This document shows positions 35,464-64,000 of a DNA stretch of 64,000 nt, piece after piece. The stretch comes from Rhodoferax sp. AJA081-3 (GTDB lineage Bacteria; Pseudomonadota; Gammaproteobacteria; Burkholderiales; Burkholderiaceae_C). Made by a program: the position numbers and the translations under genes. The stretch covers positions 1-64,000 of the forward strand of contig NZ_CP059068.1 in the NCBI RefSeq assembly GCF_017798165.1, read 5' to 3'. Each line of letters starts with the position of its first letter. Position 1 is the first letter of the stretch. The notes beneath the pieces were generated by a model. It had not been told where the DNA came from. It saw only the letters and a program-made list of their open reading frames with translations, and ran no database searches.

Positions 35464-38193
35464 CTACCAATCTTCTTTCACCGCCAGCACGGCGTCACGC
35501 CCGGCCGCCGCACGCCCGGCCAGCCAGGCCGTCAGTGTGCCAGCCACCACCACCGCAGCCGCCAGTGCCAACAGTCTAAGCGTGGGCAAGCTTAATTCCA
35601 TACTCCAGTGGAAGCTTTGCGGGTTGACCACATGCACTAATACTACTGCCACCGCCAGCCCCAGGGCTATGCCGGCGATCGCGCCCAGCGTGGTCCAGGC
35701 CATGCCTTCGGCGGCCACCACCCGCAGCACCTGGCGGCGTGTCAGGCCCAGGTGTACCAAGAGGCCAAACTCCTTGCGCCGCGCCAGCACCTGGGCGCTG
35801 AAGGATGCGGCCACGCCAAACAGGCCTATGCCAATGGCCACGGCTTGCAGCCAGTAGGTCACTGCGAAGCTGCGGTCAAAGATTCGCAGCGTGGTGGCCC
35901 GTATCTCGCGCGCCGAGCCAAAGTCCATCAGGCGGCCGGCTTCACCACCCGGCGTGCCGGCCTGTGTGTTGGCCAGCTGGCGCAGTGATTGCTCGATGGC
36001 GGGGACATCGGCGTCGGGCTCCAACCAGAAGGCCAGGTCGTTGACCCGTCGGTCGCCGCTGAGCCGCTCAAAATCTGCTTGGTCGATGGCGATGGTGCCA
36101 AACTGGCGGGCATAGTCGCGCCACACGCCTGCTATGAAAAACGTAGCGTTACCGTTATATTTCTCGGGGGCTAGAGCCCTAAAATGCTCAGAAAGTGCCG
36201 GGTAAACGGTGCCAGGTCTGGCGCCGTGTAAGTCGGCCATGGCTTCGCTGACGTAAATGCCAATCTGGCCCGGTGGCACGGGCAGTGGCTCGCCTATCAA
36301 TGGCAAGCCGTGTTTGGCTGCCGTTTTGCGCTCCAGGAATCTGGGCGGCAGAGCGCTCTGCTTCGTGTCCCCCGCCCGCTGCACGGGCTCCTCCTTTACC
36401 TGCGCAGAACGCTCTGTCGCCCAGATTCCCAGCGGTCTGGCGATCAACGAGACGGCAGGCAGTGTGGGGTCCGGCAGAAACTGCTGGTTGCGTTGGGTGG
36501 TCAGCCGCACCACACCGGGCAGGCGGGCCGCGGCCTGCACAAAGGCGGGCTCGAAGTAGGCCGTGTCTTGTGTGCTTGCGCTGGCCGCGCTGCGCACGTA
36601 CAGCTCGGCGGGCAGCACGGTGTCCAGCCACTGGGTGATCGATGTGCGAAAGCTGGCCACCATCACCGTCAGCGCCACAGCCAGGCTGAGTGCAGCCACC
36701 ACGCCGCTCACTGCCACCGCCGCACTGCCGCGCACGCGGCGCGCGCGCTCTACCGCCAGCAGCGGCAGGGCCTGGCGTGCCACCAGGGGTGCCACCCGGT
36801 CCAGCACCACACCCACCAGCCAGGGCAGGCCGGTGATACCGCCCACCAGGATCAGACCCACGCTCACATAGGCGGCCAGGGGCACACCGCCTATGGGCGG
36901 CAGCAGCGCCAGCAGTCCGCCGGCCAGCAGCAGACACACCGCCAGCACCACATGGTTGGGGTTGGACTGGGCCGTGCCCAGGCCTTTGAGCGTCTGCGCC
37001 GCCGGCAGGCCCTGCGCCCAGCGCGCCGGCCACCAGGCGCCCACCAAGGCGGCTGCCACGCCCAGCGCCGCAAACACAACCGCCGCCAGCGGGTTCCACT
37101 GCAAGGCCGGCGTGGCGCCAGAAAAATAGCCACCGCCCAGATCACCCCCCAAAAGCCGCAGGGCCAGTGCCGCCAGGCCACTCCCTAGTGCGATGCCCAG
37201 GGCGCTGCCCACCAGACCCAGCACCAGTGCTTCCAGCAGCACCAGGTGCAGGCGTTGCCGCCCAGTAAGCCCCAGTACACCCAGCAGCGCCAATTGGGGC
37301 GCACGCCGGCTCACGCTCAGGGCCAGCACCGAAAACACCAAAAAACCGCCGGTGAACAGCGCCACCAGTGCCAGCACTGTCAGGTTGACCCGGTAGGCGC
37401 GCGACAGGGTGGACATACGCTCCAGCGTGTCGCCCGGCTCCACCAGTTGGGCATTGCTCGGCCAGTCGGGAGCGGCCTGCACTGTGCGCACAAAGGCTGC
37501 GCGGTCCACACCTGCGCGCAGGCGTATGTCCAACCGGGTCAGGCGGCCGTTTTTTTCAAAAAGGTCTTGTGCCGCGGCAATGTCCATCACCGCCAGTGGT
37601 GGGCCCGCCGCGCGCACGCTGCCTGCTATCCGCACGGTCTTGGTCTGCAGGCCCCACTGCAGTTGCACCGTGTCGCCCGCGATGCGGCTGCGGGCGCTGG
37701 CGTTCAAAAAAACGTTGTCTGGCGCAAAAATGTCCAGCCGGTCGGCCGTAGCAGAGGGCAGGGGTATCAGATCGGGGTTGAGCTGCCCCACCTGTATGGC
37801 GTCCACACCCACCAAACGCAATTGCACCCGGGAGGATTCGCCGAGTTTGGAAGTCGCAGCCTGGGTGTCCTGTGCATTGAGCGCATAACTGCTGAGCTCC
37901 AGCACCGGGCTGGCCAGCGCCACATCGGGGTGTCGGGCCATGCGCGCCAGCAAGGCTTCGTCAATGCCTGCAGTGGCACCGGTGCGGGCACGTAGCTCCA
38001 GATCAGGCTGGCCACCCACTGAGCGCACGGCCTGCGCAAACTCGTCCAGGGCCGATGCATTGATCACATGCACCGCAAACGCCAGCGCCACACCCAGCAT
38101 CACCGACACCACGGCCGCCGCATTGCGCCAGGGGTGTTTGCGCAACTCTTGCCAGGAAAAGGTGGTCAGCAGGGGCCAAAGCGGAGAAGACAT
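35464..38193 (-). CDS. FtsX-family ABC transporter permease with two in-frame repeat insertions
   Basis: Large inner-membrane permease of 909 residues with two FtsX domains and extracytoplasmic loops, the class that works with a LolD-like ATPase on lipid or lipoprotein transport (AttG/LolC-like). The start at 38193 gives WQELRKHPWRNAAAVVSVML at the N-terminus; the frame extends upstream without need. Residues about 589-620 are encoded by a 94-bp palindromic element also present at 62062, and residues about 669-688 by repeat copy 4. No ATPase gene is adjacent. The GGDEF-EAL gene follows on the same strand after 9 bases. Confidence 0.85.
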   Translation of the reverse strand: MSSPLWPLLTTFSWQELRKHPWRNAAAVVSVMLGVALAFAVHVINASALDEFAQAVRSVGGQPDLELRARTGATAGIDEALLARMARHPDVALASPVLELSSYALNAQDTQAATSKLGESSRVQLRLVGVDAIQVGQLNPDLIPLPSATADRLDIFAPDNVFLNASARSRIAGDTVQLQWGLQTKTVRIAGSVRAAGPPLAVMDIAAAQDLFEKNGRLTRLDIRLRAGVDRAAFVRTVQAAPDWPSNAQLVEPGDTLERMSTLSRAYRVNLTVLALVALFTGGFLVFSVLALSVSRRAPQLALLGVLGLTGRQRLHLVLLEALVLGLVGSALGIALGSGLAALALRLLGGDLGGGYFSGATPALQWNPLAAVVFAALGVAAALVGAWWPARWAQGLPAAQTLKGLGTAQSNPNHVVLAVCLLLAGGLLALLPPIGGVPLAAYVSVGLILVGGITGLPWLVGVVLDRVAPLVARQALPLLAVERARRVRGSAAVAVSGVVAALSLAVALTVMVASFRTSITQWLDTVLPAELYVRSAASASTQDTAYFEPAFVQAAARLPGVVRLTTQRNQQFLPDPTLPAVSLIARPLGIWATERSAQVKEEPVQRAGDTKQSALPPRFLERKTAAKHGLPLIGEPLPVPPGQIGIYVSEAMADLHGARPGTVYPALSEHFRALAPEKYNGNATFFIAGVWRDYARQFGTIAIDQADFERLSGDRRVNDLAFWLEPDADVPAIEQSLRQLANTQAGTPGGEAGRLMDFGSAREIRATTLRIFDRSFAVTYWLQAVAIGIGLFGVAASFSAQVLARRKEFGLLVHLGLTRRQVLRVVAAEGMAWTTLGAIAGIALGLAVAVVLVHVVNPQSFHWSMELSLPTLRLLALAAAVVVAGTLTAWLAGRAAAGRDAVLAVKEDW
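36130..36187 (-). repeat. CGGGGGCTA-family repeat, copy 4 (in frame inside FtsX permease)
   Basis: GCTATGAAAAACGTAGCGTT, then TTATATTTCTCGGGGGCTAG and AGCCC; the 14-mer CGGGGGCTAGAGCC is identical to copy 2. The minus strand reads through it as HFRALAPEKYNGNATFFIAG without a stop. Confidence 0.7.
36336..36429. repeat. Long palindromic element, copy A (inside FtsX permease)
   Basis: A 94-base near-palindrome. Outer arms GGAATCTGGGCG (36336) and CGCCCAGATTCC (ending 36429) pair perfectly; the inner part contains CCGCCCGCTG...GGGC. Its 57-base core at 36352-36408 matches 52 of 57 positions with copy B at 62079-62135. Arm sequences differ between copies but stay self-complementary. Confidence 0.85.
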
Positions 38194-62061: not shown

Positions 62062-62157
62062 GGGAGCATGGGCGGTAAAGCGCTCTGCTCCGTGTCCTCC
62101 GCCCGCTGCGCGGGCTCCCCGTTTACCTGCGCAGAGCGCCTTACCGCCCAAGCTCCC
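62062..62157. repeat. Long palindromic element, copy B
   Basis: A 96-base near-palindrome with arms GGGAGCATGGGCGGTAA and TTACCGCCCAAGCTCCC (one mismatch) and an inner CCGCCCGCTGCGCGGGC hairpin. Core 62079-62135 matches copy A in 52 of 57 positions. This copy lies between genes; a 30-codon frame across it (62068-62160) ends on a TAG at its right edge. Confidence 0.85.
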
Positions 62158-62250: not shown

Positions 62251-64000
62251 ATGACCGCCTACGCAGATTTCTACCGCCGCTCCATAAACGACCGCGACGG
62301 CTTTTGGGCCGAAGAGGCCAAACGCATTGACTGGCAGACGCCGCCCCAACAGGTTTGCGACTACAGCAACCCGCCATTCGCGCGCTGGTTTGTCGGTGGC
62401 ACCACCAATCTGTGCCACAACGCGGTCGACCGCCACCTCAAAGACCGGCCCGACCAGCCCGCGCTGATTGCCGTCTCCACCGAAACCAATACCGAGCAGG
62501 TCTACACCTTCACCCAACTGCATGCCGAGGTGCAGCGCATGGCCGCCGCGCTGCTGGAGCTGGGAGTGCAAAAAGGCGACCGGGTCTTGATCTACATGCC
62601 CATGATTGCAGAGGCTGCGTTTGCGATGCTGGCCTGCGCCCGTATTGGCGCCATCCATTCCGTGGTGTTTGGTGGTTTTGCGGCCGGTTCTTTGGCCTCG
62701 CGCATTGAAGACGCCAGCCCCACGGTCATCGTCAGCGCCGATGCGGGCTCGCGGGGGGGCAAAGCCATCGCCTACAAGCCGCTGCTGGATGAAGCGATCA
62801 GCCTGTCCAGCCACAAACCCACAGCCGTGCTGCTGGCCGACAGGCAACTGGCTGCTATGGAAATGGTAGCGGGACGCGACCATTCCTGGGGGGCTCTGCG
62901 GCAAAAACATCTGAACACCGTTGTCCCCTGCGTGTGGCTGGAATCCACTCACCCCAGCTACACGCTGTACACCAGCGGCACCACCGGCAAGCCCAAAGGT
63001 GTGCAGCGCGACACCGGCGGGTACGCCGTGGCGCTGGCGGCCAGCATGGAGCACATCTTCTGCGGCAAGGCAGGCGAGACCTATTTCTCGACCAGCGACA
63101 TCGGCTGGGTGGTGGGCCACAGCTACATCATCTACGGCCCGCTGATCGCCGGCATGGCCACCATCATGTATGAGGGCCTGCCCACGCGACCCGATGGCGG
63201 CATCTGGTGGAGCCTGGTCGAAAAGTACAAGGTAACGGTCATGTTCAGTGCCCCTACCGCTGTGCGGGTGCTGAAGAAACAAGATCCGGCCCTGCTCACC
63301 AAATACGATCTGTCCAGCCTGCGTGCACTGTTTCTGGCGGGTGAACCGCTGGACGAACCCACCGCACAGTGGATCAGCCAAGGGCTGGGCGGCAAACCCA
63401 TCATCGATAACTACTGGCAGACCGAAACCGGCTGGCCGATTCTGAGCATTGCCAACGGTGTCGAATCCAAGCCCAGCAAATTCGGCAGCCCGGGCGTGGC
63501 CATGTACGGCTACAACGTCAAGCTGCTGGACGAGAACACGGGTGAAGAACTGATGGGTGCCGACCAGAAGGGTGTGGTCGCCATCGAAGGCCCATTGCCG
63601 CCCGGCTGTATGCAGACGGTCTGGCGTGACGATGCCCGTTTTGTCAAAACCTATTGGAGCAGCATTCCCGGCAAGCAGGTCTACAACACCTTCGACTGGG
63701 GTGTGCGCGACAAAGATGGCTACTTCTTTATCCTGGGCCGTACCGACGACGTCATCAACGTCGCCGGCCACCGCCTGGGCACACGTGAGATTGAAGAGAG
63801 CATCTCCAGCCATCCCAATATCTCCGAGGTTGCCGTGGTGGGTATTGCAGATGCGCTCAAGGGCCAGGTGGCCGTCGCCTTTGCCGTGGTCAAGGATGCC
63901 AGTGCACTGGTAGATGACGCGGCCCGCGCCAAGCTGGAGGCCGAAGTGATGAAGGTGGTGGACAACAGCATTGGCGCGGTGGGTCGCCCGGCCCGTGTGC
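62251..64000 (+). CDS. prpE: Propionate--CoA ligase, partial (cut by window end)
   Basis: ANL-superfamily acyl-CoA synthetase converting propionate, ATP and CoA to propionyl-CoA, feeding the methylcitrate cycle. At least 583 residues are present; the frame is open at the window end. Motifs: start ADFYRRSINDRDGFWAEEAK, P-loop TSGTTGKPKGVQRD, DIGWVVGHSY, NYWQTETGWP and GRTDDVINVAGHRLGTREIEE. The VQRD and GWP contexts point to PrpE, not to acetyl-CoA synthetase. The catalytic lysine region lies beyond the window. ATG 62251 follows AGGGATG weakly. Confidence 0.9.
   Translation, partial: MTAYADFYRRSINDRDGFWAEEAKRIDWQTPPQQVCDYSNPPFARWFVGGTTNLCHNAVDRHLKDRPDQPALIAVSTETNTEQVYTFTQLHAEVQRMAAALLELGVQKGDRVLIYMPMIAEAAFAMLACARIGAIHSVVFGGFAAGSLASRIEDASPTVIVSADAGSRGGKAIAYKPLLDEAISLSSHKPTAVLLADRQLAAMEMVAGRDHSWGALRQKHLNTVVPCVWLESTHPSYTLYTSGTTGKPKGVQRDTGGYAVALAASMEHIFCGKAGETYFSTSDIGWVVGHSYIIYGPLIAGMATIMYEGLPTRPDGGIWWSLVEKYKVTVMFSAPTAVRVLKKQDPALLTKYDLSSLRALFLAGEPLDEPTAQWISQGLGGKPIIDNYWQTETGWPILSIANGVESKPSKFGSPGVAMYGYNVKLLDENTGEELMGADQKGVVAIEGPLPPGCMQTVWRDDARFVKTYWSSIPGKQVYNTFDWGVRDKDGYFFILGRTDDVINVAGHRLGTREIEESISSHPNISEVAVVGIADALKGQVAVAFAVVKDASALVDDAARAKLEAEVMKVVDNSIGAVGRPARV

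What the first reader, a model, noticed from the sequence alone, without database searches (positions are those of the whole stretch)
36336..36429. A 94-96 bp palindromic element occurs twice, once in frame inside a protein gene
Copies at 36336-36429 and 62062-62157 share a 57-base core (52 of 57 identical). Their outer arms differ in sequence (GGAATC/GATTCC versus GGGAGC/GCTCCC; CAGA/TCTG versus TAA/TTA) but remain self-complementary, so the fold, not only the sequence, is preserved. Copy A is translated on the minus strand as about 32 residues (589-620) of an FtsX-type permease without a stop. In-frame palindromic insertions of this size are known from Rickettsia (RPEs); I know of no described counterpart in Comamonadaceae. 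It could be a non-autonomous mobile palindrome.
Basis: partly seen in the sequence, partly recalled or inferred. Interest (0 to 1): 0.8.

Follow-up and report, generated by a model that had tools for sequence, protein, structure and literature searches.

The report
Dispersed hairpin element inside bacterial genes
A roughly 95-base DNA hairpin is scattered through this bacterium's genome and those of its relatives, sometimes in frame inside ordinary protein genes; its centre stays nearly constant and is found in either orientation at the same site, while its two arms change freely but still match each other.

Summary
Each copy has a conserved asymmetric internal loop, a variable tip stem and a long outer stem whose sequence differs between copies but stays complementary. 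Copy A is a clean 96-bp (32-codon) in-frame insertion: 29 of 29 orthologous loci lack it; a word-based search of 5.8 billion proteins finds the segment in no other FtsX, but the same peptide in HrpA and an oxidoreductase. At mpl 25 of 30 fetched loci hold an in-frame copy: core about 95% identical where third codon positions are 52-58%, arms different, core orientation changed at least twice on the tree. Close neighbours form inverted pairs of one polarity (28 of 31). No transposase is linked; Y1/RAYT gives no support. Closest kinds: RPEs, intragenic REPs, and perhaps BRE (2011), whose sequence I could not compare. Best reading: a non-autonomous hairpin element, new variant of a known kind; mobilising agent unknown.

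The parts
36336..36429 (+). Copy A: whole hairpin, class I; C-strand of the element on +, so its G-strand is the sense strand of the permease
36336..36361 (+). Left arm of copy A
   Evidence: 24 of 26 complementary to the right arm
36364..36401 (+). Conserved internal loop of copy A enclosing the variable tip stem (CGTGTCCCCC..tip..CTCCTCCTTTACCT)
36404..36429 (+). Right arm of copy A
35464..38193 (-). FtsX-type ABC transporter permease gene (PF02687) interrupted in frame by copy A (residues 589-620)
62062..62157 (+). Copy B: class I hairpin, intergenic, 3-4 bp after a stop codon
61446..62057 (+). Isochorismatase-domain gene just upstream of copy B (ORF listed from 61359)
62251..63999 (+). AMP-binding acyl/acetyl-CoA synthetase gene downstream of copy B (runs off the window)

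Best explanation
A family of non-autonomous hairpin elements, of the same broad kind as REP/MITE/RPE repeats. SHOWN: each copy is an outer stem of variable, self-complementary sequence, a conserved asymmetric internal loop, and a variable tip stem; whole hairpins, arms included, are present in one species and absent at the same site in others; copies in genes that I read are open, in-frame inserts (32 codons at copy A, about 29 at mpl), in either orientation; close neighbours are inverted pairs of one polarity; at the mpl site of related species the core is almost constant as DNA, occurs in both orientations, and the arms differ while remaining complementary. INFERRED: the recognised form is a folded single strand, the G-strand (GCAGGTAAAGGAGGAG..CGGGGGACACGGAGC), because wobble-type departures from pairing fall on that strand about 2:1 to 7:1; a trans-acting factor recognises the internal loop while the stem need only fold; the whole hairpin spreads as a unit through a single-stranded DNA or RNA form; opposite orientations at one site come from inversion in place, by recombination or template switching between the arms. 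UNKNOWN: the enzyme that moves it.
For: 78 places in the genome and at least 80 of 100 genus genomes (77 with the exact motif; G007, G046, G107 with variant copies). Arm covariation: 23 of 28 outer pairs change on both sides, 0 of 500 shuffles reach the covariation score, slides of 1-3 columns drop pairing to 32-47%. Empty sites: FtsX 29 of 29, net 96 bp in the closest; the 4076412 copy absent in G022 and G076; the 3105447 copy absent in the one relative read, G109. 12 of 78 copies in frame in genes by a strict coding test, 16 of 78 by a looser gene model; same peptide in unrelated proteins. Pair polarity 28 of 31 in named loci and 8 of 9 in this genome. mpl: core identity 0.925-0.965 in the four divergence bins against 0.45-0.74 at third codon positions; in seven copies that share arms, hence surely orthologous, core 0.966 against 0.772 third and 0.892 first plus second positions. 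Orientation changes at least twice on strongly supported branches; one of seven cobB copies is also inverted. Wobble bias, counted on the C-strand, G.T against A.C (A.C there = G.T on the G-strand): 7:50 in 43 copies, columns 8 inward and tip stem; 60:122 in 72 own copies; 146:280 in 125 copies from named contigs; 20:34 in 23 mpl copies. Counted on the G-strand in 25 mpl copies, G.T 35 and A.C 13.
Against: No transposase is linked: no element within 30 Y1_Tnp loci or beside this genome's single Y1 gene. Target-site duplication could not be fixed: copy A allows up to 4 bp (CCAG), other copies end in CTAG or CCAG/CTGG, which a palindrome gives anyway. Arms are alike among class I copies but unrelated between many mpl copies, so divergence after insertion and repeated insertion at one site are hard to tell apart. 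Wobble counts are not independent between copies and binomial p values are naive; in the mpl set and in the gene-sense and class III subsets the bias does not reach significance. Persistence of core and of pairs at orthologous sites suggests a local function that pure mobility does not need.
Confidence: 0.6

Rival explanations
1. It is primarily a functional structured nucleic acid (RNA hairpin or protein-binding hairpin) kept by selection at each site, for instance a 3'-end structure or a binding site for a conserved factor; dispersal is secondary.
For: Core more conserved than first plus second codon positions in surely orthologous mpl copies, although inverted copies encode another peptide; inverted pairs found at the orthologous intergenic site in 5 of 10 and 4 of 6 relatives, with changed arms and spacers; one pair polarity, 17 of 28 spacings at 100-107 bp; 19 of 62 intergenic copies between convergent genes against 9 divergent.
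Against: Copies lie in either orientation in genes and beside genes; 4 of 24 genus genomes have no BLAST match; some copies are absent in relatives, and the same two pair sites are empty in 3 of 10 and 2 of 6; no match to the element in Rfam at gathering threshold and only weak miRNA matches at copy A.
Confidence: 0.25
2. It is a REP/REPIN system mobilised by a Y1 (RAYT) transposase.
For: Hairpins, inverted pairs of one polarity, intergenic majority, strand-biased fold, and use as an IS110 target as reported for REPs. Y1_Tnp is present in 94 of 100 genus genomes.
Against: Y1 is there whether or not the exact motif is (22 of 23 genomes without an exact match have Y1, though at least three of these carry variant copies); 5 genomes with the motif have no detected Y1 (all drafts); Spearman 0.12, p 0.25 on exact-motif counts; none of 30 Y1 loci carries a copy within 1.5 kb. 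Hairpins are longer than the 20-40 bp of REPs (PMC3733652 abstract) and I saw no GTAG tag.
Confidence: 0.1
3. At mpl and cobB the copies are repeated independent insertions into a tolerant hot spot rather than one inherited copy; constancy of the core then only reflects recency, and opposite orientations are new insertions.
For: Arms are unrelated between many species; the mpl loop holds other sequences in G103 and G093 and differs in the solved relative 3hn7; of 20 copies sampled from the best BLAST hits in G007, G001 and G020, 19 have TGAC as their mpl copies do, where 61 of 72 own copies have TTTACC.
Against: A ten-species clade with two shared arm types shows core 0.971 against third positions 0.771; presence is clustered on the tree; G074 has TTGACC in mpl but TTTACC in cobB, so cores are not simply replaced genome-wide.
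Confidence: 0.3
4. It is simply the published BRE repeat of Betaproteobacteria seen in another genus.
For: Length 75-91 bp full and 40-60 bp partial, GC-rich, intergenic and sometimes within coding sequences, listed in Rhodoferax, Polaromonas, Acidovorax, Delftia and Azoarcus.
Against: In the parts of the paper I saw, palindrome, hairpin and inverted are not used for BRE, and tandem arrays are described; I could not obtain a BRE sequence.
Confidence: 0.5

Closest known systems
Rickettsia palindromic elements (RPE)
   Same: About 100-150 bp hairpins dispersed in and between genes, in-frame open reading frame, unrelated host proteins
   Different: Other lineage; here the arms change while an internal loop is fixed, both orientations are read, and both orientations occur at one site. 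RPE features are from reviews (passages); sequence not compared
BRE, Beta-proteobacterial repeat element (Hot et al. 2011, PMC3110155)
   Same: Size, GC richness, taxa, intergenic plus some intragenic copies
   Different: Reported as tandem arrays, palindromy not mentioned in what I read; sequence not available to me, so identity is open
REP / REPIN / BIME and intragenic GTAG/CGTC REPs (PMC3733652)
   Same: Hairpins, inverted dimers, some in coding regions, targets of IS elements
   Different: REPs are 20-40 bp with a tag; here 90-110 bp, no tag seen, no RAYT link
MITEs such as ERIC, Correia/NEMIS, YPAL (PMC2229807)
   Same: Non-autonomous palindromic repeats, in-frame fusions known
   Different: MITEs share terminal repeats with an autonomous element (recalled definition); none found, and here the ends are the variable part
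Coding palindromes of nematomorph mitochondria (PMC6649704, abstract and outline read)
   Same: Inverted repeats read through in coding genes
   Different: There the arms encode conserved protein regions; here a dispersed insert with a fixed loop

Membership tests
RPE-like protein-coding palindromes | In-frame insertion absent from orthologues | tested here: met
   29 of 29 orthologous FtsX loci lack the core; one search finds the segment in no other FtsX although another 41-residue stretch of the same protein finds 275 proteins
RPE-like protein-coding palindromes | Same peptide in unrelated proteins | tested here: met
   HrpA x2 and a PF01266 protein, 10 of the 120 listed proteins (184 found) have no Mur-ligase domain, among them three MutL-type, a xanthine dehydrogenase small subunit, two AraC-type
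RPE (Rickettsia families) | Sequence homology to RPE consensus | not tested
   no RPE sequence was fetched
BRE | Sequence homology to published BRE | not testable with these tools
   sequences are in a figure and a supplement that could not be read
BRE | Size, taxon range, coding and non-coding location | tested here: met
BRE | Direct tandem arrays with few bases between repeats | tested here: not met
   of 31 close neighbours in named loci 30 are inverted and 1 direct; in this genome 9 of 9 inverted. Orientation within BRE arrays is not stated in what I read
REP/RAYT | Flanks or tracks a Y1 transposase gene | tested here: not met
   copy counts rest on the exact motif only
REP/REPIN | Inverted dimers of one polarity | tested here: met
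MITE | Ends shared with an autonomous element | tested here: inconclusive
   48 arm-like matches in this genome; the one pair 1.3 kb apart is an IS110 inserted into a copy; only one arm type searched
MITE | Target-site duplication | tested here: inconclusive
   up to 4 bp compatible at copy A
Known Rfam RNA | Match at gathering score | tested here: not met
   five loci with copies give one match, 5_ureB_sRNA at L192 368-657, not at the copy; copy A only weak miRNA matches below gathering

The most novel reading that the evidence does not exclude
A hairpin element with two uncoupled layers: an internal loop conserved as nucleic acid across Betaproteobacteria and able to flip in place, and arms that are sequence-free but obliged to pair. 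A trans-acting factor would read the folded G-strand loop, so that genes such as mpl, cobB, hrpA and mutL carry long-lived, orientation-flipping coding hairpins that alternate between two unrelated peptides of about 30 residues at the same protein site.
Probability: 0.3. Interest if true: 0.78.

Novelty: new variant of a known kind. Interest (0 to 1): 0.64.

Why it matters
Protein-coding palindromes were presented as a unique but recurrent feature of Rickettsia (title of Ogata et al. 2002, seen in a reference list), and how they spread is unknown as far as I know. Here is a lineage with many genomes, empty and filled sites, orthologous copies in opposite orientations, and a clear conserved loop to fish with. 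That makes three open questions testable: what moves such hairpins, why the loop is conserved inside genes, and what a switch between two peptides does to enzymes such as Mpl and CobB.

Tried and rejected
Chance repeat: rejected. Known RNA family: none. Phage or plasmid cargo: 0 exact matches in IMG/VR; no BLAST match for class I copies in phages or plasmids; two weak plasmid hits with other queries proved copies by the covariance model, in Burkholderia anthina and Variovorax. Autonomous IS with the same ends: the only candidate, 82-84 kb, is an IS110 element sitting inside a copy. RAYT: no support as partner; note that the exact motif misses variant copies (G007 has none exact, yet 9 of 9 sampled copies are variants). 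Integron attC: not tested by a tool; the R'/R'' boxes as I recall them are absent. Peptide-level selection as the cause of core conservation: rejected, because three inverted mpl copies keep the DNA but encode another peptide. Full concerted evolution of cores: not upheld (G074 mpl and cobB differ). Structure of Mpl with the insert: single-sequence model useless, mean pLDDT 38. Sequence-string search of papers: 24 papers, none on this element among the 20 listed; name searches gave BRE and intragenic REPs as nearest. I first numbered the protein region wrongly (another stretch of the permease), kept it as a control and repeated it correctly. My notebook says 14 in-frame copies; the listing holds 12.
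Full report
OBSERVATION. Folding is far below shuffles. BLAST of copy A found 45 distinct places in this genome with 40 of 75 candidates scored. A covariance model built on 43 own copies gives 78 distinct places at E <= 10, the weakest at 26 bits; 150 of 2646 candidates were scored.

ANATOMY. Written with copy A on the + strand, a copy reads: outer stem; TTYTGC; internal loop TCCGTGTCCYCC; tip stem and loop; internal loop CTCCYCCTTTACCTGC; GCARAA; outer stem. In 43 aligned copies 90.4% of pair cells are standard pairs against 70.4% with 3' letters shuffled, 26 of 34 pairs have changes on both sides, and sliding the partner by 1-3 columns drops pairing to 32-47%. The tip stem also changes on both sides (3 of 6 pairs). 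I sorted copies by eye into three arm classes: class I singles (GAGNCTGGGCGGCAGAGCG), class II inverted pairs, class III with other stems. Among copies from other species the outer stem reaches about 40 bp and differs between copies of one genome, for example Oxalobacteraceae CAVE-383.

STRAND. Departures from Watson-Crick pairing are not symmetric. On the C-strand of the 43 copies, columns 8 inward and tip stem, G.T occurs 7 times and A.C 50 times, so on the other strand (the G-strand) the wobble G.T/G.U occurs 50 times. A free alignment of arms gives 60 against 122 in 72 of the 78 own copies, 146 against 280 in 125 of 131 motif matches from named contigs (copies failing the length or score filter were dropped), and 20 against 34 in 23 of 25 mpl copies, the last not significant; subsets by gene sense and class III are also not significant alone. 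A fixed-register count in 25 mpl copies gives 35 G.T and 13 A.C on the G-strand. I read this as a fold of the G-strand as RNA or single-stranded DNA. Copies share ancestry, so the p values are naive.

INSERTION. At the permease, 29 of 29 loci from other genomes of the genus (of 100 searched; those fetched with both flanks) lack the core; the closest are 96 bp shorter, exactly 32 codons. In a database of 5.8 billion proteins a 41-residue query over the insert finds four proteins among five candidates: this permease, two HrpA helicases (one named Rhodoferax sp.) and a PF01266 protein, whereas another stretch of the same permease finds 275 among 277 candidates, the 120 listed with the FtsX domain. 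The method needs shared 5-residue words and similar length, so it is not exhaustive.

IN GENES. 12 of 78 own copies pass a strict test (open frame through the copy, coding score on both sides); a looser gene model places 16 of 78 inside genes. Frames recur: with the G-strand as sense 5 of 7 read like AQVKEEPAQRAGDTEQN and 2 of 7 in another frame; with the C-strand as sense 5 of 5 read like SAPCPPPALRAPPLPAQN. Hosts include mpl (TIGR01081), cobB (NF002204) and hrpA twice (TIGR01967), and mutL, which is further split by an IS110 element inserted into the copy. A search with the mpl insert returned 184 proteins of 389 candidates; of the 120 listed, 110 carry Mur-ligase domains, some named Hydrogenophaga, and 10 are unrelated, MutL among them.

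ORTHOLOGOUS SITES. Of 30 mpl loci fetched (this genome included; the best matches among 100 genomes searched) 25 hold a copy and 5 do not, and the reading frame is open through all 30; two further loci that I read are empty, with a few residues in its place. In 22 of 25 the G-strand is sense, in 3 (G003, G088, G065) the core is inverted. On a tree of the flanks the inverted state needs 2 changes and strongly supported branches force 2. Across 300 pairs the 36-nt core is 0.925-0.965 identical in the four divergence bins, third codon positions run from 0.74 down to 0.45 and arms are 0.57-0.69. In seven copies that share arms the core is 0.966, arms 0.889, first plus second positions 0.892, third 0.772. 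Since inverted copies keep the same DNA with another peptide, conservation is at the nucleic-acid level. 18 of 22 arm positions show changes on both sides, and pairing is 0.853 against a mean of 0.603 (maximum 0.684) with right arms shuffled. The cobB site is occupied in this genome and in 6 further species that I read (chosen because two matches lay about 2.2 kb apart, so not a random sample), one of the seven with the core inverted. Two intergenic pairs were followed: at one, 5 of 10 relatives have a pair, 2 a single hairpin, 3 none; at the other 4 of 6 have a pair and 2 none; arms and spacers differ.

PAIRS. In loci L134-L253 I counted 147 cores with palindromic arms; 31 neighbours lie within 400 bp, 28 of them C-strand then G-strand, 2 the reverse, 1 direct; 17 of the 28 spacings are 100-107 bp. 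In this genome 8 of 9 close neighbours have that polarity, at 19-102 bp between model matches. A covariance search found such pairs in Hydrogenophaga, Janthinobacterium and Variovorax too.

RANGE. Exact motif: 77 of 100 genus genomes, 0-41 copies; three more (G007, G046, G107) carry variant copies, so at least 80. By BLAST 20 of 24 other genus genomes and 0 of 16 genomes of other families. In the order sample of 399 genomes 4 have the exact motif, this genome included. The window's organism is probably a Rhodoferax (inference).

MACHINERY. No partner found. Y1_Tnp occurs in 94 of 100 genus genomes, among them 22 of the 23 without an exact match (at least three of which carry variant copies); 5 draft genomes have the motif without a detected Y1; rank correlation with exact counts 0.12 (p 0.25); no copy in 30 Y1 loci or beside this genome's Y1 gene. 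This test is weaker than it looks because Y1 is nearly universal. The IS110 element at 82-84 kb is inserted in the conserved loop and looks like a parasite of the element, as IS elements are of REPs (PMC1525189, seen as a search listing only).

LITERATURE. Hot et al. 2011 (section 14 and passages read) name BRE, the most likely published relative; its sequence was out of reach. Di Nocera et al. 2013 (passages) report REPs inside genes in several species, and Delihas 2007 (passages) in-frame MITEs; Cozzuto et al. 2008 (passages) list Bordetella stem-loop families. The MITE review of 2024 (passages) treats RPEs as the extreme case and says that a similar process elsewhere is conceivable. So coding palindromes as such are known; what I did not find described, in searches of an open-licence library, is a family with a fixed loop, free arms, both orientations at one site and G-strand bias.

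VERDICT. A real, widespread, RPE-like hairpin element of Betaproteobacteria; new variant of a known kind, possibly BRE; mechanism of movement unknown.

Noticed in passing
L081 (G000:C1:81700-84400), beyond the window: IS110-family element (DEDD transposase, 327 aa) inserted in the conserved loop of a copy that itself lies in mutL, so mutL is read as two separate frames in this genome.
   Followed up: partly
L331 and L343 (mpl of G103 and G093): The mpl loop that holds the element elsewhere holds other sequence here, in L331 a different GC-rich palindromic-looking repeat (CTGCCCCCCGAGGGGGC..GCCTTGGGGCGGC).
   Followed up: no
L380 (G074) and L381 (G095): An inverted pair of copies read in frame, C-sense then G-sense, at the N-terminus of a BtuF-like protein near cobB (name recalled from sequence, no family search).
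   Followed up: no
L289 (G003), pair locus 3119666: Next to the orthologous hairpin pair G003 carries an extra stretch that looks like a toxin-antitoxin pair (by sight only).
   Followed up: no
G000:C1:777171, 1907222, 2154216, 2194921, 3017631, 3406038, 3410931, 4037867, 4068243, 4878000: Class III hairpins with their own end motif (CCGCAGCAG..CTGCTGCTCG), 9 of 10 lying 15-37 bp after a stop codon by my gene model.
   Followed up: partly
core, C-strand: CTCCTCCTTTACC resembles the 16S rRNA 3' end (recalled), and the G-strand a strong Shine-Dalgarno; the CTCCCCC variant weakens the match.
   Followed up: no
G001 contig 1 (3763024 bp): Same length as AP026970.1, Comamonadaceae bacterium OS-4, so the unnamed genus probably contains that strain.
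   Followed up: no
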